Assembly (NCBI GenBank): GCA_016929465.1
Contig: JAFGIT010000034.1
Coordinates: 1 to 11,633, forward strand
Direction: 5' to 3'
Length of the DNA: 11,633 bases
Source of the DNA: JAFGIT01 sp016929465 [NCBI: Candidatus Coatesbacteria bacterium]
GTDB taxonomy: Bacteria; B130-G9
Shown: positions 1 to 8,862 of the stretch, in pieces
Layout of the letters: every line of letters starts with the position of its first letter
Numbering within the stretch: the stretch's first letter is position 1
The notes under the pieces: model-generated
Seen by the model: the letters and a program-made list of their open reading frames with translations, nothing else
What the model was told of the DNA's origin: nothing
The model's database searches: none
Translations under genes and position numbers: made by a program

Positions 1-960
1 CTCGGAACGAATGACGGTGGCGTCAGCATCTTTGACGGCACGGACTGGACCACGCTCTGTGCCGGGCATTTCAATGCACCCGACACCCGCCTCGATAAGG
101 TCGTATTCGACGCGGCGGGAAAGGCCTGGTTCGCCTCCAACGGCGGCGGGGTAACGGTATTCGATGGATCACACTGGCAAAACTATACCCATAGGAACGC
201 CCCGTTCAGGAGCGCATGGGTGGGTGCGATTGCGGTCCACCCGGATGGCACCGTGTGGGTCGGAACGGAGGGGGGCGGCGCCTATTCCTTCGACGGAAAC
301 GCCTGGAGAATTTTCGCGCCGCCGGAGACCGGCTTTATCCACGACGCGATCACCGATATAGCAGTGGACCAGGCCGGACGGACATGGTTCGCCACTGGAC
401 ACCACGGCCTGAGCGTCTTCGACGGCAAGAAGTGGACGGTCTATAATCCGGCGGACAGCGGACCTACGAGCCGCGATGTGCGTGGCATTGCGATCGATGC
501 GAAGGGCAGGATGTGGTTCGCGACTATGAATGGTCTCGCACGTTTCTATGGTAAGTCATGGAAGGTCTATAGCACCACTAACAGCGGCCTGGACCAGGAC
601 AGGTGTTACTCCATCGCGGCCACGCGCGACGGTTCCGTGTGGGTGGGTCACCAGAACTCGGTCAGCGTGTTCGACGGTAAGGGGTGGTCGGTCCACAAGG
701 CGCATCAAGACGGCCTCCCGTCTGGCTTTGTGCAATCGATAACCGAGGATGAGGATGGTGCGATCTGGTTTGGGACATCGCGGGGAGGACTCGCCAGGCT
801 TCTCAACGCGAGCTGGAAGATCTATACTGCGCAGAATTCGATGCTCGCGGACAACGAAGTGACGGATGTCGGGGTCGCTCCCGACGGTCGGTTGTTCATT
901 ACGACCGGACTGGGCCTGAATGTCCTGACAATTACGGAGCCGGAAGCCCAGTCCGAATAA
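1..960 (+). CDS. Beta-propeller (two_component regulator propeller / Reg_prop-like) protein, 5'-truncated
   Basis: The reading frame is open from the first base to a TAA stop, giving 319 residues without a start; the gene begins left of the window. Seven visible repeats of 42-44 residues each contain a hydrophobic-I-D-x-x-G-x-x-W-[FV]-[AG]-T strand followed by F-D-G-x-x-W. The final Trp of each unit falls at residues 16, 60, 102, 145, 187, 229 and 272 of the visible part. This is the pattern of the Reg_prop / ligand-binding sensor propeller family (COG3292-like). In hybrid two-component sensors such propellers precede a Y_Y_Y domain, a membrane segment and a kinase. Here the chain stops about 47 residues after the last Trp with no membrane segment, kinase or Ig domain, so it is probably a stand-alone secreted or periplasmic propeller, though the N-terminus is unseen. 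It is convergent with the next propeller gene. Ligand and role are unknown. Family call is confident; function is not. Confidence 0.85.
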   Translation, partial: LGTNDGGVSIFDGTDWTTLCAGHFNAPDTRLDKVVFDAAGKAWFASNGGGVTVFDGSHWQNYTHRNAPFRSAWVGAIAVHPDGTVWVGTEGGGAYSFDGNAWRIFAPPETGFIHDAITDIAVDQAGRTWFATGHHGLSVFDGKKWTVYNPADSGPTSRDVRGIAIDAKGRMWFATMNGLARFYGKSWKVYSTTNSGLDQDRCYSIAATRDGSVWVGHQNSVSVFDGKGWSVHKAHQDGLPSGFVQSITEDEDGAIWFGTSRGGLARLLNASWKIYTAQNSMLADNEVTDVGVAPDGRLFITTGLGLNVLTITEPEAQSE

Positions 961-995: not shown

Positions 996-1031
996 ATGGA
1001 CAATATGGACTGAATGGACAACATGGACAGG
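996..1031 (+). repeat. 9-bp tandem repeat, ATGGACWRN type, four copies
   Basis: ATGGAC recurs exactly every nine bases at 996, 1005, 1014 and 1023, with variable last three bases (AAT, TGA, AAC, AGG). It lies just after the stop of the propeller gene and is the first of three different tandem repeats packed into this convergent junction. It is not coding in any supported frame. Confidence 0.8.
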
Positions 1032-1050: not shown

Positions 1051-1080
1051 GTTGGCAGTTAGCAGTTGGCAGTTGGCAGT
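1051..1080 (+). repeat. Heptamer tandem repeat GTTGGCA, four copies
   Basis: Units are GTTGGCA, GTTAGCA, GTTGGCA, GTTGGCA, then a partial GT. The same heptamer in the same orientation reappears at the other convergent junction (4654-4679). The style resembles the degenerate heptanucleotide STRR repeats described in cyanobacteria, but identity with any named family is not claimed. Confidence 0.85.
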
Positions 1081-1095
1081 CCGCCTTCCTCCCAA

Positions 1096-1176
1096 TTGAC
1101 CTCTTTGCCCCCTTTGACCTTTTGACCCTTTGACCTATTTACCTATTCGCCCTTTTGACCTATTGACCCCTTGACC
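1096..1176 (+). repeat. Octamer-period tandem array of TTGACC (YY) units
   Basis: TTGACC or a one- or two-base variant occurs at 1096, 1105, 1114, 1122, 1130, 1138 (TTTACC), 1146 (TTCGCC), 1155, 1163 and 1171, a period of 8-9 bases over ten units. The plus strand is pyrimidine-rich, so the 3' end of the minus-strand propeller transcript would be purine-rich with GGTCAA units. No hairpin followed by a T-run is present, so it is not a classical intrinsic terminator. Shorter versions occur near 4692 and 8811. Confidence 0.85.
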
Positions 1177-1179
1177 CGT

Positions 1180-3399
1180 CTAATCTACATGATATGACGC
1201 TATGGCGACCTTGCCATCGCGTGGGCCGATCAGGAGGTCCATACCACCGAATAGGCTTATGCCCGCGTAGAAGGTGTAGTCGCCCGGGGTGAGGAGAGAT
1301 GTGTCTATATTGACGAGTTCCTCAGTCCGGCAAGATGAGGCTGATAGCGTCAGGTTGAGCGGCGATGGTTCTGGGCCCCAATTGGGATAGTAGAATATAT
1401 TGCCATTGTATTCACATGCCAGCCACAGCGATACGGGGATTATTTCGCCCGCATTCGTGAGATCTGCGGCCAACTTCAGGGTGCCGACCGGATTCTCGGC
1501 AGCCGAGAGTGCAATCGACTGCTGGGCAGGACCACCATCCTCGAGGCGCGAAAGCCCACCAGATGTGCCGACCCACTTGTCGCCGTTATGGTCGATTGTG
1601 ATAGAGTAGAGCCTCGTGCCTGCGAGCCCATCAGATTGATGGAATTCGGCCACGGAGCCGTCCTGCTTCATGCTGATCACGCTGTAGCGTCTCATCGAGT
1701 CATAGGCCAGGAACCAAAGATCACCGTTCGCATCAAAGGCCCCGAAAGTCGTCATTTCGCTCGATAGCTCCTTCCAACTCCCCTCATCGAGGCGATAGAC
1801 CCCCGCCTGAGTGAAAAAGACAAGGCGCTGCTGTAGGTCGAATACCACGCTTGCCACACCGACATCGGCGAACGGCAAGGGTTCTGGAAGCTGGTCCACT
1901 CGCCAGTTCTCGCCGTCGAATATACTGATTAAGCTGTCCAGTATGACCCAGATTTCGTCATTCGATGCAATCGCAAGCGTTGGCGCTTCACGACCTCCAA
2001 TGCCTGGGCCGAATATACTGCCGGTCGGATAGACGTCCCACACATCGTCCTTTATCCGTACAACGCCGCTGAAATCGCTTGTATAATCGGGCCCCACACA
2101 GGCCCATATTTCCCCATCTGGGCCGGGCTCCAGCGTCTCGGCGATGCAGTCCGTTACGCCGTGGTCATATCCTTCCTGGAATGAGAATTCTACGCCATCG
2201 AAGGTTATCAGGCGGAATGGATACTGCAGCACGTGTATAGCCCCCTCCGTGTCCCCGCACGCCGCGATAATGCCGGCGTTGCCGAATACACCCTCTGGCC
2301 TGAAGTACTTCCAGGCATCGCCTTCTTTGTATCCTGTGCCATATATAGATGGATGGTCCGTGGCGATCCAATCGCGTCCCTGGAAGTCCTCTACTACATC
2401 CATAATGACATTTTCGGGAGGGCCATCGGGGAATCCGATGTGCGAGAAATCAATCCCATCGAATAGAATGAGGCCGTCGGTCCTGGTGGCTATCAGAATG
2501 CTCTCGCCCCCCAGGGGTGCCACTCCCCATACACCATACCGATAGGTCGCCTGGTCATCGGGGTCATAAACCAAGCTGATCCCGCATGCCTCGGTGATGA
2601 TCAGCTCATCGCCCCCACGGTTTCGTCGGAGGAGACCGGCGCTGGCGTACGCCCATAGGGTTCCATTTGCATTGAAGTTGAAGCCGTTTGGCCCGTACGG
2701 GAACGGGCCCCAGATTGAGCCATCGTCGAGCTTGATCCACTCGTCTTCATCAAACATCCAGAGACCTTGCTCAGAGCCAGCATAGACAACGCCCGATAGG
2801 TCGCGAGAAAACTGGTACAGACCAGTTTCGAACTCCTTGCAGTCGATGAACGTCCCGCTGTGCTCATCGTACCTCTCTATGCCATTTGCTGCGTAAAAGA
2901 CATTGCCAGATCGATCCACAATCAACTCATAAGGGAAGCCTTCCGTAGAGACGGGATTCACTTCAGTGCCGACAATATGGAATAAGTGGTCCCAGGGATT
3001 ACCTGGTATGGTCCCTATGACCCAAGCCTCGTCACGTGAGATGGCCGCGATACCATAGCCACCCGAGAATTCGGCGAAATTGTAAATCTCTCCGTCCGCA
3101 AGCCGTGCAACCTGCCAGCCGCCCATCCATACTGAGCCATCGGGAGCGATATCGGTGGCGCAGGTCTGGCTGAAACTCGCGCCAGTACTAGTCGAAAGCT
3201 CGGCGAGCTCCATGCCATCCCAGGCAAGCGTGCCGCAGAATGTGCCGATGGCAACGCTGCCTGCTTGTGAGGACACGATGTAGTTGTGGTTGTAATTTCG
3301 GTAGCTCTCGATCTCGAAACCTATCGCGAGAGAGCTGAAAAGCAGAAACAGCGCGGAGATGAGAACTATATTCAGGCTCGAACTCTTTTGGATAAGCAT
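1180..3399 (-). CDS. Exported beta-propeller protein with C-terminal Ig-like domain
   Basis: 739 residues from the chosen start. Residues 1-27 form a signal peptide (Lys, then a long Leu/Ile/Val core ending Ser-Ser-Leu-Ala-Ile-Gly), so the protein is exported. Residues about 35-620 are degenerate propeller units of the Reg_prop type, for example D-x-x-G-x-x-W strands near 87-92 and 603-611 and F-D-G-x-x-[FW] motifs near 313, 400 and 494. Residues about 627-739 form an Ig-like domain homologous to two linker domains of the beta-helix protein encoded nearby (conserved N-x-G, W/Y-x-A, G-x-x-[FY]-[LY]-P, and G-x-Y near the end). An ATG 16 codons upstream (3447) is also in frame, but the chosen ATG has GGAG eight bases before it and puts the signal peptide at the true N-terminus. 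No membrane anchor or sorting motif is recognised at the C-terminus. Likely a surface or secreted binding protein; ligand unknown. Confidence 0.87.
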   Translation of the reverse strand: MLIQKSSSLNIVLISALFLLFSSLAIGFEIESYRNYNHNYIVSSQAGSVAIGTFCGTLAWDGMELAELSTSTGASFSQTCATDIAPDGSVWMGGWQVARLADGEIYNFAEFSGGYGIAAISRDEAWVIGTIPGNPWDHLFHIVGTEVNPVSTEGFPYELIVDRSGNVFYAANGIERYDEHSGTFIDCKEFETGLYQFSRDLSGVVYAGSEQGLWMFDEDEWIKLDDGSIWGPFPYGPNGFNFNANGTLWAYASAGLLRRNRGGDELIITEACGISLVYDPDDQATYRYGVWGVAPLGGESILIATRTDGLILFDGIDFSHIGFPDGPPENVIMDVVEDFQGRDWIATDHPSIYGTGYKEGDAWKYFRPEGVFGNAGIIAACGDTEGAIHVLQYPFRLITFDGVEFSFQEGYDHGVTDCIAETLEPGPDGEIWACVGPDYTSDFSGVVRIKDDVWDVYPTGSIFGPGIGGREAPTLAIASNDEIWVILDSLISIFDGENWRVDQLPEPLPFADVGVASVVFDLQQRLVFFTQAGVYRLDEGSWKELSSEMTTFGAFDANGDLWFLAYDSMRRYSVISMKQDGSVAEFHQSDGLAGTRLYSITIDHNGDKWVGTSGGLSRLEDGGPAQQSIALSAAENPVGTLKLAADLTNAGEIIPVSLWLACEYNGNIFYYPNWGPEPSPLNLTLSASSCRTEELVNIDTSLLTPGDYTFYAGISLFGGMDLLIGPRDGKVAIASYHVD

Positions 3400-3407
3400 G
3401 GTGCAGA

Positions 3408-3411
3408 CTCC
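3408..3411 (-). promoter_or_regulatory. Ribosome binding site deciding the start of the exported propeller gene
   Basis: GGAG on the minus strand stands eight bases before the ATG at 3399. The alternative ATG at 3447 has no comparable site and would place 16 polar residues before the signal peptide. Confidence 0.65.
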
Positions 3412-3450
3412 GGAACAAGTAAATGAATAGTCATTAATTCTACGCATGTT

Positions 3451-3559: not shown

Positions 3560-4642
3560 ATGAAATTTATGCCGGGGCTCGACCTTTGCGAGCGGTTTTA
3601 CCGCGACGCGGTCAGCCCGATACTCGAAAGGCACTTCCCGGGATTGGTTCATTCGGCGGGTAGGCTGGGCCGCGGTTCGGATGTTCTCGGCTTCGATACG
3701 CCGACTTCGATGGACCATCACTGGGGGCCCAGGGTCACTCTTTTCTTGAAGGGTGACGACTTCGACCGATACGGAGAGAGCATCCCCGAAGTCATGTCAA
3801 GGGAGTTGCCCTACGAGGTCTGCGGGATACCGACCAATTTCTGCCACCAGGAGGCCCGGTTCGGACAGCTCAAAGCAATCGAAAGCGGCCCGGTCAGCCA
3901 TGGTGTATCCGTGACCACGACCAAGGCCTTCTTCGAGGGCTATATCGGTATCAATGCGCTGGATGGACTATCGGCTCTCGATTGGCTCTTGATACCCCAT
4001 CAGCTGCTACGAACGATCGCATCGGGGAGGGTATTTCACGACGGGCTGGGAGAATTGGGACCCGCACGGGAGGTGCTTGCGTGGTATCCGCATGACGTTT
4101 GGCTGTATCTTTTGGCCTGCCAATGGAGACGGATCGATCAGGAAGAGCCTTTCATGGCTCGCTGCGACGACGTCGGCGATGAGCTGGGCTCTCGTCTCGT
4201 CGCATCGCGGATGATCAATGAGCTGATGAGGCTCTGCTTCCTGATGGAGCGGCAATATGCCCCCTATTACAAGTGGTTCGGCACGGCCTTCTCTCGGCTC
4301 GAATGCGCGAGCATTCTGACGCCGATATTCCAATCGATCTTCGACAGCAGGAATTGGCGGGAGCGAGAGCAGCACCTATCCACCGCATACATTCAAGTCG
4401 CGAAGATGCACAATGCACTTTCACTAACTCCCCACATAGAGCCCGAACTATCGAATTTCCACAGCCGACCATACATGGTTCTGCATTCGGAGCGATTCGT
4501 GGATGCTCTCCATGGTCAGATCGAGTCGGAAGAGGTCCGACTGCTGCCCAAGCATATCGGTGCGGTCTGGCAGTTTGCTGATTCGACGGACGTTCTCGAC
4601 AGGCTCAATAGGTGCAGGCAATTAAGGGTGCTATATCGCTGA
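3560..4642 (+). CDS. DUF4037 domain protein with nucleotidyltransferase-like N-terminus
   Basis: 360 residues, with no signal peptide or membrane segment, so cytoplasmic. Residues 37-63 carry the DUF4037 signature: G-R-G-S-D-V-L-G-F-D, then T-x-x-S-x-D-H-x-W-G-P-R, leading into a hydrophobic strand. Gly39-Ser40 with Asp46 and Asp52 resembles the G-S...D...D metal-binding motif of the nucleotidyltransferase fold; this is inference, as no substrate is established for the family. The rest (about 125-350) is helical, with R-Q-Y-A-P-Y-Y-K-W-F-G near 230-240, a conserved-looking feature of the family and reminiscent of the helical C-terminal part of kanamycin-type nucleotidyltransferases. Length is typical of DUF4037. 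It stands alone between two oppositely oriented surface-protein genes and has its own promoter and RBS, so no functional link to them is implied. An antibiotic-resistance role should not be assumed. Confidence 0.85.
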   Translation: MKFMPGLDLCERFYRDAVSPILERHFPGLVHSAGRLGRGSDVLGFDTPTSMDHHWGPRVTLFLKGDDFDRYGESIPEVMSRELPYEVCGIPTNFCHQEARFGQLKAIESGPVSHGVSVTTTKAFFEGYIGINALDGLSALDWLLIPHQLLRTIASGRVFHDGLGELGPAREVLAWYPHDVWLYLLACQWRRIDQEEPFMARCDDVGDELGSRLVASRMINELMRLCFLMERQYAPYYKWFGTAFSRLECASILTPIFQSIFDSRNWREREQHLSTAYIQVAKMHNALSLTPHIEPELSNFHSRPYMVLHSERFVDALHGQIESEEVRLLPKHIGAVWQFADSTDVLDRLNRCRQLRVLYR

Positions 4643-4653
4643 TTGCATTGGTC

Positions 4654-4679
4654 GTTGGCAGTTGGCAGTCAGCAGTTGG
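4654..4679 (+). repeat. Heptamer tandem repeat GTTGGCA, second locus
   Basis: Units are GTTGGCA, GTTGGCA, GTCAGCA, then partial GTTGG. Same heptamer, orientation and order relative to the following pyrimidine-rich array as at 1051-1080, and again placed directly after a plus-strand stop codon and before the end of a minus-strand gene. Confidence 0.8.
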
Positions 4680-4691
4680 TCTCCCTCCCCT

Positions 4692-4714
4692 CTGACCTTT
4701 TTGACCTTTTGTAC
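4692..4714 (+). repeat. Short TTGACC-type array, second locus
   Basis: CTGACC at 4692, TTGACC at 4701 and TTGTAC at 4709 keep the 8-9 base period seen at 1096-1176, inside a pyrimidine-rich run that reaches the stop of the beta-helix gene. No intrinsic terminator hairpin is visible for either flanking gene. Confidence 0.65.
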
Positions 4715-4729: not shown

Positions 4730-7700
4730 CTACGGCAGCGGGTAGTGGTAGCCCATATCAACCTTGCCGGTGTCGGGTGTGCCATCCGCCTGGGTGGTCC
4801 TGTTCGAGAGGCCTGCATCGACGGCGGATTGGCTTCCCGCGTCTATGCACGGGCTGTCGGGGTGGAGGTAATAGCCGCCGAATGGGCCTGTGACGAATAT
4901 CGGATTGTCGTCGATACAGCCTTCCTCACCTGCCCATGGCCAGTCCTGGATGCAGCAGAATGAGATCGAGCCGTATATTCGATTTGGCTCCTCGGAGCCA
5001 GTGTTTCCCCATACGATGCAGTCCCTGACCAGATCATGGTCGTGGTGGATCGCACTTCCGAGGGGGGCGGAATTATTCGCTATCGTGCAATTGATGAGGG
5101 ACCTTCCGCCGTCATTGCAGAGGCCGCCGCCGAAATCATGCGCGCAATTGCCGGAAATCAAGCAGTTAACTATCAGGCCCTGGCAGCCGCTGACGCCACC
5201 ACCACCCATCCCAGCAGAATTATCCGCAATCAAGCAGTTGGATATCATGCCAGAGCAATCGTACAGGCCGCCACCGTGGAAGGCTGAATTGCTCCAGATC
5301 TCACAGTCGGATATGAGCCCGTCGCAGCCCGATATTCCCCCGCCGCCGAATGATGCGGCATTCCCGAAAATGCGGCAATTCGCTATCTCGATCTTTGAGA
5401 GAAGCGGGTTCCACCCCCCGATGCCGGCACGGATACCGCCACCGCTCTCTGCTGAGCCATTGGTGATCGACAAGCCCAGTATCTTGCATGTTTCGTTCTC
5501 GGTGCCATTCAACTCAATGACAGAGCCATTCTGGCCGCCGTCAATCACGGTCGTCTCCACGATATCGGGATCGAGAGGATCGAGGGAGGTTAGCGTCAGG
5601 TTCTTTCCGTCAAAGCTGACATTCTCGAGGTAGAGGCCTGGGTGGACGACGATCGTATCAGACTCCATGGCGCAATCGATAGCATGCTGAATGATATCGA
5701 AGTCGCCAGAACCATCCTGCTTCACCGAGAATTCCAGCGCGAAGCCGCGATGGTAGTTGATAGTGAATTCAGCGACGTTGCTTATGGGCTTCTGGCTAAT
5801 ATGATCGAGCACGAGCGCGTAAATGACAAATATATCTCCCCTCTCCAATGTGGTGAACGCATAGTCGAACGGCTTCGGGCTCCAGGTCTCTCCCGGCCCG
5901 AGTTCCACGCCGGAAGCCCATGGCGCCCAATGATCATCGAGTGCAGGCAGGAAGAGAAACTCGCCTTCAACCGTCTTCAGCGCTGCGAAAAGGTCAATCT
6001 CCCTTGTGCAGCCGATGTTTAGAACCTCAGCCTTGATCTCCATCACATCCTGACCGACGTACATATCCCGATCAGCGGCGACAGTGACGCTGCATCCCTC
6101 CAGGAACTCATAGGCACCAATATCAACGCCATCGCCGATTATGCGAAGTGAACCATCCAGATCGACGTCGCCGATCTGGGCATTCGAGTCGCCTGCATCG
6201 ATACAAGGAGAGGCTGATTGCAGACGGAAATCGCGAGTCCAGAAATCAACGAAGAGAGGGTCTTCCGATATGTTTCCGCTACCGCCACCACCCCAGGATT
6301 CGATGCAACAATGGGTCGGGATGCAAGATCCCAGATATATCGAAGGGCTGTCCTTTGCGGTATTATTCCAGATGATGGTGTTTATGATCTCTCCTTGAGG
6401 GTCGTGGAATCCGCCTCCTGATTGCGCCGAGTTGCCCGCGACGGTGCAATTCACAATTGACGCTCTGCCCCATGCGAAGCCGCCGCCCTCAGCGTCGGCG
6501 CCGTTGTTGCTGATCAGACAGCTGATGAAGCTGCCCCAACAGCTGCTTACTGCACCGCCACATGGCGCGGAATTATCGCTTATGACACAACGTTCGAATC
6601 GACCGCTGCCGCCGTAGATTGCACCTCCTGATTCCGAAGCGGCATTCTCCGTGATGACGCATCTCGACACAAGACCATCGCAGTTGCAGAGCCCGGCGCC
6701 AGAGCTTGCGGCTCGGTTGCCTGAAATGAGGCAATTAATGATGTCACCACCGCAATCATCCAGGCCGCCTGCCCCGCCAATAAGAGAAGTCCGTTGATTG
6801 GCGCGATTGCCAATGACCGAGCAACCCTCGATATCACAAGGACATGAAGAGAAGCCACCCCCGCCCCAACCTGCGATGTTCTCGGAGATAGTGCAGTTCG
6901 ATATGAGACCGGAACAGCGATTAAAGCCGCCCCCATCCAATCCCGATTCATTTCCGCCGATAAAGCTGTCTGCGACGTTGACATCACAGTGTGAAAGGCC
7001 TCCACCGTGCGCTTCAGAACGGTTCCCCGATATCGAGCAGCTACTTATGTCGCCCTTAAAGGCATATATGCCACCACCATCCTCGCTCGCCGAACTGTCG
7101 GATATTATGCAATTTTGCAGGATGTCATGTCCCCCGAACTCCACGGGCCTCGACCACAATATTCCGCCGCCATACGCTGCGAAGCCATGCTTCAGAGTGA
7201 TCCCCCCGAGCAGGATCGAGCCTCCGTCGCTCGTGAATGTCACCACGGAGCCTTCATCGCGCCCATCGACTATCGTTGCCTCAACGGTCGATGGGTCGTC
7301 TGGATCGATGGACCGCACCGTCAAATCCCGATTCCCAACTCTCAGGTTCTCGAAGTAAATCCCAGGATGAATGACAACCGAAGCGCCGGAACGAACGCCA
7401 TCTATAGCCGCTTGAATCGTGGGGAAATCGCCCGTGCCGTCGGGCTTCACAGTGTACTCGTTTGTTGGGGCGGAGCTGTAATGAAAGGAGCCGATGAAGA
7501 TATTGCTTGTGAATTCGCCGATCGAGCCAGCACTCGAGAGAGCAGCATAGGACCGGTACGTTCCACTGGGCTCGTATCCCGTGAATTGCGCGCCAAATGA
7601 CACGAAGGGCCTCGCGGAGATGTCCGCCTCCAACTCGAACGAGCTGAAGCAGGGAGTCCAATCTGGAGCAATCCAGGGCAGGAACAACAGATCCCCGAGT

Positions 7701-8800
7701 GGAGTCTCGACGGCGGCATATACATCGACGATGCGGGCCTTTCCCAGATTTCGCACCTCGAGCTCGAGCGTGAGCTGATCCCTGTCTGAGTAGGTTGGTT
7801 TGTCGCTTAGCATTCCGACGTAACATCCGAAGGGATACTCGAAAGCTCCCATGTCCACAGATGATCCAACGATTCTTGGATTGCCTTCGAGATCCCGATT
7901 GCCATAGCCGGCGGATTCAGAACCGGCATTCGCGCAGGGCGAGAAGGGGCTGAGCCGGTAGTCGCCCAGAAGCGGATCAATGAATTGCGGGTCGTCCGAG
8001 ATATTGCCTGCGCCGTTTGCGCCGCCTTGAACACAGGAATAGGTTGTGGAGCTCACGCAGAGCTCTCCCCCTTCGTTCCCCCAGAGAATCAGATTGCTGT
8101 TGTCGCCATAGCACATCGAGAGGCCGCCGCCTTCCCAGGCCGAGTTATATGCGATGGTGCAGTTGACGATCGCACCGTCACAGGATGCCAGACCGCCGCC
8201 TCTGATCTGCATGGTTCCACCGCGGTTGCCTGTGATAAGGCAATTCGATATCGTCCCACCACAACCGAATAGCCCTCCACAAACGCCCGAGGCAGAGTTG
8301 TTGCTGACTATGCAACGGTCGATCAAACCCCCGCAGTACACGATTCCACCTCCAGCGAAGCCCTCGTTAGCGGTCACGATGCAATCAGTTATCGTCGCCA
8401 TCGTGAATGGGCCCGAAGCGGAGAAAGGTGCACAATTGATGCCGCTGTCGTCGCCGTTTGTGATCTTGAATCCCGCCAGCAGGCAGTCTTCGCTCTCGGT
8501 CCCATCAAACGTTACAACTGCGCCGTAGCCTCCCCCGTCGATTACGGTCATCTCTACTACCGTCCGGTCCTTCGGATTGGTCGATACGAGCGCCAGGTTT
8601 TTCGCATTGAAGCGGATATTCTCATAGTAAGTCCCCGGATGAACGACGATCTCATCACCGTCCGCCGCCGCATCGATCGCATCCTGGATGGCTGTGAAGT
8701 CGCCGGTGCCGTCTTGCTTCACATTATATGTCGCTGCATGCGCCGCACCTGCAATTCCTATCAGAATTAGAGCACCCAGAATGCATCCGATTCGCTTCAT
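4730..8800 (-). CDS. Giant secreted right-handed parallel beta-helix protein, three modules with Ig-like linkers
   Basis: 1356 residues; residues 1-22 are a signal peptide (MKR, hydrophobic core, A-A-H-A). Three modules begin near residues 25, 449 and 1025 with V-K-x-D-G-[TS]-G-D-F, an A-I-D motif, V-[VI]-H-P-G-x-Y-x-E-N and a V-I/V-D-G turn. This is the N-terminal cap of pectate-lyase-like / polymorphic-outer-membrane-type helices. Each continues with coils of about 24 residues (C-x-G-x-I-x-x-C-x-I-x-x-N-x-A-x-x-G-G-G). Each ends in a choice_anch_Q-like segment: D-P-x-F, S-P-C-x-x-A-G, then D-[IM]-G-[AY] at about 265-322, 843-899 and 1296-1353. Ig-like domains (about 324-447 and 900-1020) link the modules; none follows module 3. 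Catalytic residues of a lyase are not recognised, so a structural or binding role is more likely. The ATG has a GGGG-type SD six bases upstream. It has no clear membrane anchor. Surface or secreted location is inferred. Confidence 0.9.
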   Translation of the reverse strand: MKRIGCILGALILIGIAGAAHAATYNVKQDGTGDFTAIQDAIDAAADGDEIVVHPGTYYENIRFNAKNLALVSTNPKDRTVVEMTVIDGGGYGAVVTFDGTESEDCLLAGFKITNGDDSGINCAPFSASGPFTMATITDCIVTANEGFAGGGIVYCGGLIDRCIVSNNSASGVCGGLFGCGGTISNCLITGNRGGTMQIRGGGLASCDGAIVNCTIAYNSAWEGGGLSMCYGDNSNLILWGNEGGELCVSSTTYSCVQGGANGAGNISDDPQFIDPLLGDYRLSPFSPCANAGSESAGYGNRDLEGNPRIVGSSVDMGAFEYPFGCYVGMLSDKPTYSDRDQLTLELEVRNLGKARIVDVYAAVETPLGDLLFLPWIAPDWTPCFSSFELEADISARPFVSFGAQFTGYEPSGTYRSYAALSSAGSIGEFTSNIFIGSFHYSSAPTNEYTVKPDGTGDFPTIQAAIDGVRSGASVVIHPGIYFENLRVGNRDLTVRSIDPDDPSTVEATIVDGRDEGSVVTFTSDGGSILLGGITLKHGFAAYGGGILWSRPVEFGGHDILQNCIISDSSASEDGGGIYAFKGDISSCSISGNRSEAHGGGLSHCDVNVADSFIGGNESGLDGGGFNRCSGLISNCTISENIAGWGGGGFSSCPCDIEGCSVIGNRANQRTSLIGGAGGLDDCGGDIINCLISGNRAASSGAGLCNCDGLVSRCVITENAASESGGAIYGGSGRFERCVISDNSAPCGGAVSSCWGSFISCLISNNGADAEGGGFAWGRASIVNCTVAGNSAQSGGGFHDPQGEIINTIIWNNTAKDSPSIYLGSCIPTHCCIESWGGGGSGNISEDPLFVDFWTRDFRLQSASPCIDAGDSNAQIGDVDLDGSLRIIGDGVDIGAYEFLEGCSVTVAADRDMYVGQDVMEIKAEVLNIGCTREIDLFAALKTVEGEFLFLPALDDHWAPWASGVELGPGETWSPKPFDYAFTTLERGDIFVIYALVLDHISQKPISNVAEFTINYHRGFALEFSVKQDGSGDFDIIQHAIDCAMESDTIVVHPGLYLENVSFDGKNLTLTSLDPLDPDIVETTVIDGGQNGSVIELNGTENETCKILGLSITNGSAESGGGIRAGIGGWNPLLSKIEIANCRIFGNAASFGGGGISGCDGLISDCEIWSNSAFHGGGLYDCSGMISNCLIADNSAGMGGGGVSGCQGLIVNCLISGNCAHDFGGGLCNDGGRSLINCTIANNSAPLGSAIHHDHDLVRDCIVWGNTGSEEPNRIYGSISFCCIQDWPWAGEEGCIDDNPIFVTGPFGGYYLHPDSPCIDAGSQSAVDAGLSNRTTQADGTPDTGKVDMGYHYPLP

Positions 8801-8810
8801 ATCATTCCCC

Positions 8811-8862
8811 TTGTCACCCTTTTTGCTTGTCCCTTCTCCTTTGCCCCCTTGACCTTTTGACC
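8811..8862 (+). repeat. Third TTGACC-type octamer array, within the leader of the beta-helix gene
   Basis: TTGTCC (8828), TTGCCC (8841), TTGACC (8849) and TTGACC (8857) keep an 8-base period at the last three units, with looser TTGTCAC-like sequence at 8811. The heptamer GTTGGCA is absent here. Read on the minus strand this is the purine-rich 5' leader of the beta-helix gene, ending in the AAGGGG that serves as its ribosome binding site. Confidence 0.7.

What the first reader, a model, noticed from the sequence alone, without database searches (positions are those of the whole stretch)
1051..1176. Same composite repeat at two convergent gene junctions
Seen directly: (GTTGGCA)~4 followed by a pyrimidine-rich array of TTGACC units with an 8-9 base period lies between a plus-strand stop and a minus-strand stop at 1051-1176, and again in the same order and orientation at 4654-4714. 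Both junctions lack a classical terminator. Inference: a composite element may be recruited to, or tolerated at, gene ends and may act in bidirectional termination, mRNA 3' processing or recombination. Its two-part make-up (7-mer plus 8-mer) is unlike REP or ERIC elements.
Basis: partly seen in the sequence, partly recalled or inferred. Interest (0 to 1): 0.6.

Follow-up and report, generated by a model that had tools for sequence, protein, structure and literature searches.

The report
Repeat arrays facing each other between genes
The two repeat blocks are separate short tandem arrays that point inward from the ends of neighbouring genes, and they resemble the inverted arrays that frame a small, poorly understood gene family (S23) in other bacteria, so they may be remnants of an overlooked mobile element.

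Summary
The arrays are real and far above chance, but they are not one composite element and not tied to convergent junctions. Module A is (GTTGGCA)n, B is TTGACC plus 2-3 bases, and a third, C, is (ATGGACNNN)n at 996-1029. All recur separately in this genome, in every junction type.

What holds is a polarity rule. In 119 foreign stretches (about 74 assemblies) GTTGGCA arrays sit just behind stop codons in sense orientation: stop/sense 45, stop/anti 6, start/sense 0, start/anti 11, against about 8-9 each by chance. Further arrays from 14 of those genomes gave 11/2/0/4. So at a convergent junction each gene can carry its own array, G-rich strand inward. The rule is published for quadruplex-forming heptamers (Rehm 2015). 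Generic arrays in random contigs did not confirm it (4 inward, 5 outward).

Unexpectedly, genes of family PF05635 (S23) are framed by inverted arrays of one unit, which differs between loci: by strict detection 12 of 20 plasmid and 17 of 28 genomic genes, all inverted, against 0 of 209 ordinary genes. This genome has such a cassette with module A's unit.

Best reading: solo arrays are S23-less relatives of IVS-like elements. The architecture is shown; derivation and mobility are inferred.

The parts
996..1029 (+). Module C: (ATGGACNNN) array, 3.8 copies, 35 bp behind the stop of the left gene
   Evidence: position; 45 matches in this genome against 0 for the reversed pattern
1051..1080 (+). 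Module A: (GTTGGCA) array, 4.3 copies, 90 bp behind the left stop, sense to the left gene
   Evidence: genome count
1096..1176 (-). Module B: TTGACC array on +, that is GGTCAA plus 2-3 bases on the G-rich - strand; ends 3 bp from the stop of the right gene and is sense to it
   Evidence: genome counts
4654..4679 (+). Module A: (GTTGGCA) array, 3.7 copies, 11 bp behind the stop of the left gene, sense
4693..4710 (-). Module B remnant: two units, 19 bp from the stop of the right gene, G-rich strand sense to it
   Evidence: below the strict threshold
8841..8862 (-). Module B array in a co-directional junction, 40 bp upstream of the start of the beta-helix gene, G-rich strand sense to it
1..960 (+). 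Left gene of junction 1, propeller-repeat protein (Reg_prop), open at the contig start
   Evidence: (residues from 220-957)
1180..3447 (-). Right gene of junction 1, weak Reg_prop match
3560..4642 (+). Left gene of junction 2, DUF4037 protein
4730..8800 (-). Right gene of junction 2, beta-helix protein of 1356 residues

Best explanation
The 'composite' is two or three independent tandem arrays from different repeat families sharing one intergenic space. Each points its G-rich strand away from the gene it lies next to: ATGGAC and GTTGGCA behind the left gene, GGTCAA behind the right gene. They belong to the class of short, mostly 7-base arrays that settle close behind stop codons in many bacterial groups. 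They most likely derive from, or share machinery with, IVS-like S23 elements: a small four-helix-bundle gene (PF05635) framed by inverted copies of one array unit, mostly placed in sense orientation behind another gene. Shown: the polarity rule for GTTGGCA; the cassette architecture; a GTTGGCA-framed S23 cassette in this genome. Inferred: in RNA the two arms pair into a stem round the S23 frame, as in the rRNA intervening sequences that RNase III cuts out; such a cassette is tolerated in transcripts because cuts would fall between genes; loss of the gene or of one arm leaves solo arrays whose copy number changes by slippage. Two solos facing each other give the junction that was reported.
For: Polarity: stop/sense 45 against 8.3 +- 2.8; start/sense 0 against 9.0; 31 assemblies in seven groups; 11/2/0/4 in 53 further arrays; first/last G-strand +- in 43 regions with two or more heptamer arrays, ++ 12, -- 7, -+ 0. 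Cassettes: 16 heptamer pairs, left unit against reverse complement of right 93%, swapped pairs 56%, maximum of 2000 shuffles 74%; inverted same unit in 12 of 12 plasmid and 17 of 17 genomic genes with arrays on both sides under strict detection; 0 of 209 ordinary genes. This genome: contig 320 S23 gene between GTTGGCA arrays; contig 330 between AGGTTCA-type arrays; 7 bp behind a stop; RNA fold z -4.28, 0 of 100 shuffles as good. An S23 copy with inverted arrays lies inside a 23S rRNA gene. Papers: PMC4990558 (RNase III excision, 28-bp terminal stem, heptameric repeats before the S23 frame).
Against: The window arrays have no S23 gene and no inverted partner of their own unit. Module B has no S23 cassette among those found. 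Solo units match S23 units of their own genome in only 11 of 38 cases against 5.0 by permutation (254 of 5000 as high). Generic arrays in random contigs gave 4 inward and 5 outward, and pairs +- 3, -+ 2. In this genome family A alone is weak (5/2/1/2) and C shows no bias. Mobility was not observed: no empty site could be compared, since the DUF4037 gene had no match in 20 other genomes. Of the S23 genes 8 of 28 genomic and 5 of 20 plasmid ones had arrays on one side only, and 3 and 3 none (strict).
Confidence: 0.5

Rival explanations
1. Neutral simple-sequence repeats: polymerase slippage builds 7-9-base arrays, which are kept where they do least harm, in non-coding DNA behind stop codons. No element is involved.
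For: Period 7 dominates: 332 of 374 intergenic arrays of period 6-12 in the foreign stretches (these were chosen for a heptamer). Published surveys cited in PMC4679880 (introduction read) report heptamers as the commonest class and suggest slippage. Start-side and divergent regions are avoided.
Against: The same unit recurs at many unlinked places and in many phyla. Slippage does not predict strand polarity or one unit inverted on both sides of an S23 gene, different at each locus.
Confidence: 0.25
2. Gene-end function: the arrays act on transcription at gene boundaries, for example by R-loops or quadruplexes on the G-rich sense strand, or as C-rich Rho entry sites in transcripts that run into a gene from outside.
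For: Sense position close behind stops. The B array is C-rich and unpaired on the + transcript. Rehm 2015 reports that transcripts start or stop more often at quadruplex-forming repeats than at controls (section read).
Against: No terminator-like pattern or stable hairpin. Only some genes carry arrays, and arrays also lie inside genes (20 of 131; 6 of 21 A in this family). Units without GG follow the rule (57 inward, 11 outward; many lie beside A arrays), so quadruplexes are not required. Rehm et al. found no regulatory role (Discussion read).
Confidence: 0.15
3. One reading: A and B form one two-part element recruited to convergent gene ends.
For: Both window junctions, and contig 340 at greater distance, show A before B in one orientation. 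A and B share regions more often than uniform scatter would give (my estimate from the places).
Against: Most A and B copies stand apart; order differs in contig 19; contig 340 has another array between. Each module has its own orientation rule relative to the nearer gene.
Confidence: 0.04

Closest known systems
G-rich heptamer repeats GGGAATC / GGGGAYT of Xanthomonas and Nostoc (Rehm 2015, PMC4692102; abstract, passages, section 15 and Discussion read)
   Same: 7-base arrays, mostly intergenic, within 50 bp behind stops on the sense strand or before ORFs on the anti-sense strand; 70-75 convergent pairs per Xanthomonas genome.
   Different: GTTGGCA and GGTCAA have no GGG tract. The S23 framing is not in the parts I read.
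TAACTGA heptamer arrays of Beggiatoaceae, Cyanobacteria and Bacteroidetes (MacGregor 2015, PMC4679880; abstract, three sections and passages read)
   Same: Dispersed heptamer arrays with scattered phylogeny, close to gene edges. TAACTGA forward before starts is the same polarity as GTTGGCA behind stops.
   Different: Mostly before starts there; unit differs; a translational role was proposed.
Long simple sequence repeats (Mrazek 2007) and cyanobacterial STRR sequences; the first known only through PMC4679880, the second recalled
   Same: Period-7 tandem arrays in non-coding DNA.
   Different: Defined by repetition alone, without a gene or polarity rule.
rRNA intervening sequences (IVS) with an S23 frame, e.g. 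Coxiella (PMC4990558; abstract, introduction and passages read)
   Same: S23 gene between terminal inverted repeats; heptameric repeats before the frame; sense to the host transcript.
   Different: Confined to rRNA genes; the intergenic and plasmid cassettes here lie between protein genes. The window arrays contain no S23 gene.
REPIN-RAYT systems (Bertels and Rainey 2011, PMC3116915; abstract read)
   Same: Inverted short repeats dispersed in intergenic DNA, related to repeats beside a driver gene.
   Different: S23 is no known transposase; arms are tandem arrays, not single palindromic REPs.

Membership tests
Heptamer simple-sequence arrays (LSSR / STRR kind) | Head-to-tail units of 5-11 bases beyond chance | tested here: met
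Heptamer simple-sequence arrays (LSSR / STRR kind) | Mainly non-coding position | tested here: met
   111 of 131 A arrays outside called genes; 15 of 21 A, 17 of 20 B and 21 of 24 C in this family
Rehm-type G-rich gene-end heptamers | Sense behind stops or anti-sense before starts, close to the gene | tested here: met
   for GTTGGCA; for B sense in 8 of 8, of which 3 at starts, so the start side does not fit
Rehm-type G-rich gene-end heptamers | Tracts of three or more G, quadruplex-forming | tested here: not met
   no GGG inside the GTTGGCA or ATGGAC cores (sequence); quadruplex formation itself not tested
S23 / IVS elements | Carries an S23 (PF05635) frame | tested here: not met
   no S23 match among the five window proteins scanned; present in contig 320 with the same unit
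S23 / IVS elements | Inverted terminal repeats of one unit | tested here: not met
   window arrays face arrays of another unit; met for S23 cassettes elsewhere
S23 / IVS elements | Excision from RNA by RNase III | not testable with these tools
   reported for rRNA IVS only (PMC4990558)
REPIN-RAYT | RAYT transposase gene in the genome | not tested
   no search made
REPIN-RAYT | Palindromic REP units in inverted pairs | tested here: not met
   the units are not palindromic (sequence)
Intrinsic terminators | G+C-rich stem followed by a run of T | tested here: not met
   none in either junction; folds not better than shuffles

The most novel reading that the evidence does not exclude
S23 genes and gene-end heptamer arrays form one system. 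A cassette of S23 between inverted tandem arrays would be a mobile, transcript-embedded element whose rRNA form is the classic IVS, and the many solo arrays in bacterial genomes its gene-less offspring, as REPINs are to RAYTs. S23, a ring-forming protein related to the Avd protein of diversity-generating retroelements, would recognise the array or its RNA stem.
Probability: 0.35. Interest if true: 0.85.

Novelty: new variant of a known kind. Interest (0 to 1): 0.66.

Why it matters
Heptamer arrays at gene edges have been reported without an agent, and S23 proteins without a function (PMC4692102, PMC4679880, PMC4990558). If the two belong together, an unexplained repeat class gains a candidate driver and an unexplained protein family gains a candidate substrate, both testable in cultured carriers. 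The GTTGGCA data also suggest that the known gene-end rule does not need quadruplexes.

Tried and rejected
Composite A+B element: rejected. Convergent enrichment: not found in the main set; higher in the second, 13 of 36. Hairpin terminator: not found. Rfam: no match in the window. Clustering the neighbours of GTTGGCA arrays mainly returned translated arrays and common large families; one small family led to S23 (seven of 119 foreign stretches, anywhere in the stretch). Comparison at the same junction failed for want of a relative with the DUF4037 gene. A test of generic arrays in random contigs did not confirm the rule. Non-A heptamers in the discovery loci (74 inward, 16 outward) often lie beside A arrays and are not independent. 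Arrays inside called genes were mostly anti-sense in the first set (17 to 3) but not in the second (4 to 6). A 16S rRNA search to place the organism found none.

Errors on the way: the first gene caller missed the DUF4037 gene and was replaced. only wrote a file. One search printed its results and then failed while saving. One search took unit letters from wrong coordinates; its 'inverted same unit' figures are void and one search replaces them (its orientation counts do not use those letters). An earlier count gave B as 0 of 8; the recount is 0 of 7. Genes were called with my own script, not a standard gene finder.

Rows left out: arrays inside called genes in the end-distance tests; L424 and L430 (28 of 30 kept); periods 6, 9 and 12; 14 arrays already in the first set and 12 duplicates, where 43 of the 53 kept come from two genomes. 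Of 35 plasmid records (39 places) 20 were read, picked by hand to avoid near-copies; 18 of the 20 are cyanobacterial and some pairs are still related. Of 54 S23 matches in ten genomes chosen because they or their kin carry arrays, 30 loci were fetched.

Full report
Observation. The window is contig 67 of a 3.19 Mb assembly of 423 contigs, 86% complete. It carries the arrays described, with corrections. Junction 1 holds three: ATGGAC period 9, 3.8 copies, at 996-1029; (GTTGGCA)4.3 at 1051-1080; a TTGACC array at 1096-1176. Junction 2 holds GTTGGCA 3.7 copies at 4654-4679 and two units of B at 4693-4710. Another B array lies in a co-directional junction at 8841-8862. Counts in this genome against the reversed patterns are 50 to 3 for A, 18 to 0 for B and 45 to 0 for C.

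Not one element, not convergent-specific. Outside the window A is convergent at 1 of 7 classifiable intergenic places and B at 0 of 7; the rest of the 16 A and 15 B places lie at contig edges or in called genes. In 14 control contigs 9 of 76 junctions are convergent. Strict array patterns on about 397 kb of this genome and one relative find 21 A, 20 B and 24 C arrays in convergent, divergent and co-directional junctions, with 6, 3 and 3 inside called genes. A and B share an intergenic region at window junction 1, contig 19 and contig 340, plus window junction 2 with its weak B.

Spread. By accession prefix they come from 74 assemblies, among them Bacteroidota, Gammaproteobacteria, Cyanobacteria, Acidobacteria, Chloroflexi, Planctomycetes and one archaeon, labels taken from record titles. 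A 21-base pattern was present in 2 of 290 genomes of a broad sample, this one and a relative, and a B pattern in 1 of 290, this one.

Polarity rule. With genes called by my script, 111 of 131 GTTGGCA arrays lie outside genes. Gene ends within 40 bp are stop/sense 45, stop/anti 6, start/sense 0, start/anti 11; 500 random placements in the same intergenic space gave means of 8.3, 8.4, 9.0 and 8.6. The 45 come from 31 assemblies in seven groups. Further arrays from 14 genomes of the first set, shared flanks excluded, gave 11, 2, 0 and 4 among 53 arrays, 43 of them from two genomes. In foreign regions with two or more heptamer arrays the G-rich strand is plus first and minus last in 43, plus/plus in 12, minus/minus in 7, never the reverse. 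Reverse-complement units lie within 150 bp downstream in 17 of 87 arrays and upstream in 3 of 87. Junctions without arrays have skews of only -0.03 and +0.03 there.

Results against the rule. Generic arrays in random contigs of four genomes gave 4 inward and 5 outward within 40 bp, and region pairs +- 3, -+ 2. In this genome family A gave stop/sense 5, stop/anti 2, start/sense 1, start/anti 2; C showed no bias; B was sense in 8 of 8, but 3 of those at starts.

In print. Rehm et al. 2015 (PMC4692102) report the same rule for quadruplex-forming GGGAATC and GGGGAYT repeats: within 50 bp behind stops on the sense strand or before ORFs on the anti-sense strand, with 70 and 75 convergent pairs in two Xanthomonas genomes. 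Units without GG also follow it in my discovery loci (57 inward, 11 outward), though many lie beside GTTGGCA arrays. MacGregor 2015 (PMC4679880) finds TAACTGA arrays mostly forward before starts, which is the same polarity.

The S23 link. Neighbour clustering showed small four-helix proteins in 7 of 119 stretches and beside the longest GTTGGCA array seen in this genome, on contig 320; that protein matches PF05635, 23S_rRNA_IVP. All ten genomes searched have the family, 54 matches, while 14 well-known control genomes have none. Of 30 fetched loci 29 contain tandem arrays, against 21% of control segments of equal length. Within 300 bp, 18 of 30 have arrays on both sides, 10 on one side, 2 none. 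For 16 heptamer pairs the left unit and the reverse complement of the right unit are 93% identical, against 56% for swapped pairs (maximum of 2000 shuffles 74%); the left array is G-rich in 20 and C-rich in 1.

Independent check on plasmids. 35 plasmid records match the S23 protein; 20 were read, 18 of them cyanobacterial. Strict detection gives arrays on both sides in 12 of 20, with the same unit inverted in 12 of those 12; lenient detection 19 of 20 and 17 of 19. Genomic loci, strict: 17 of 28 and 17 of 17. Ordinary genes, strict: both sides 1 of 209, inverted 0; lenient: 7 of 209, inverted 0. Swapped pairs reach the same similarity in 12 of 132 and 22 of 272. Inverted-repeat scores exceed the 95th percentile of swapped pairs in 12 of 20. 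S23 runs the same way as its upstream neighbour in 16 of 19 annotated plasmid cases and in 23 of 25 genomic cases by my gene calls. One plasmid copy, L456, lies inside a 23S rRNA gene and has inverted GACGGAG-type arrays.

Meaning for the window. On contig 320 the S23 gene stands between a GTTGGCA array of about 12 copies, 7 bp behind the upstream stop, and inverted copies. Its RNA folds with z -4.28, none of 100 shuffles as good. On contig 330 another S23 gene stands between AGGTTCA-type arrays, which also occur solo in a control contig. S23-like frames below the family cut-off, on contig 162 and in a relative, lie beside ATGGAC arrays. Solo units in random contigs match S23 units of their own genome in 11 of 38 cases, against 5.0 by permutation, reached in 254 of 5000, which is only suggestive. 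No S23 cassette with module B's unit was found. The window arrays are thus relatives of S23 arrays by unit, polarity and position, not proven descendants.

Mechanism proposed. Shown: arms of one unit, inverted, round S23; a paired stem predicted in one case; mostly sense placement. From papers: rRNA IVS are excised by RNase III, and the Coxiella IVS has a 28-bp terminal stem and heptameric repeats before its S23 frame, while S23 proteins have no known function (PMC4990558; abstract, introduction and passages); PF05635 resembles Avd of diversity-generating retroelements (PMC10053308, passages); S23 genes occur in cas loci (PMC3936711, passage) and in rRNA insertions of CPR bacteria (PMC11270868, passages). 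Inferred: the same stem makes an intergenic cassette tolerable; gene or arm loss leaves solo arrays; slippage changes copy number.

Literature check. Searches, in an open-access library only, listed no paper whose title or abstract start reports inverted heptamer arrays round S23 genes; four of the listed papers were opened for passages. Searches covered heptamer repeats.

Noticed in passing
L064 1760-2300 (contig 320); L408-L437; L438-L457: S23 (PF05635) genes framed by inverted tandem arrays of one unit that differs from locus to locus, on chromosomes and plasmids.
   Followed up: yes
L443, L445, L446: S23 cassettes sit between cas genes (cas6/cas4, cas10/cmr3) on cyanobacterial plasmids, in the direction of the operon; S23 in cas loci is in print (PMC3936711).
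   Followed up: partly
L456: An Azospirillum plasmid carries a 23S rRNA gene with an S23 frame and inverted GACGGAG-type arrays inside it.
   Followed up: partly
window 996-1029; L287-L305: Module C keeps ATGGAC while the next three bases vary freely from unit to unit; 45 pattern matches in this genome. Such a fixed-plus-variable unit is unlike plain slippage.
   Followed up: partly
L295 427-1124 (contig 162): An S23-like frame below the family cut-off lies between ATGGAC arrays on opposite strands.
   Followed up: partly
L060, L061, L064, L065, L306, L308: GTTGGCA arrays lie inside called genes (glycosyltransferase, phosphoglucomutase, 3-dehydroquinate synthase, beta-helix proteins), anti-sense in five of six.
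   Followed up: partly
L057, L069, L070, L073, L075, L079, L080: Other short palindromes, such as GGGCGATTC...GAATCGCCC and GCCGCAGGC, recur in the same intergenic spaces as the arrays.
   Followed up: no
G293 contigs (L335, L336) and L412: One Lewinella genome uses an 8-base unit, GAGGAATC, both round an S23 gene and in solo arrays.
   Followed up: partly
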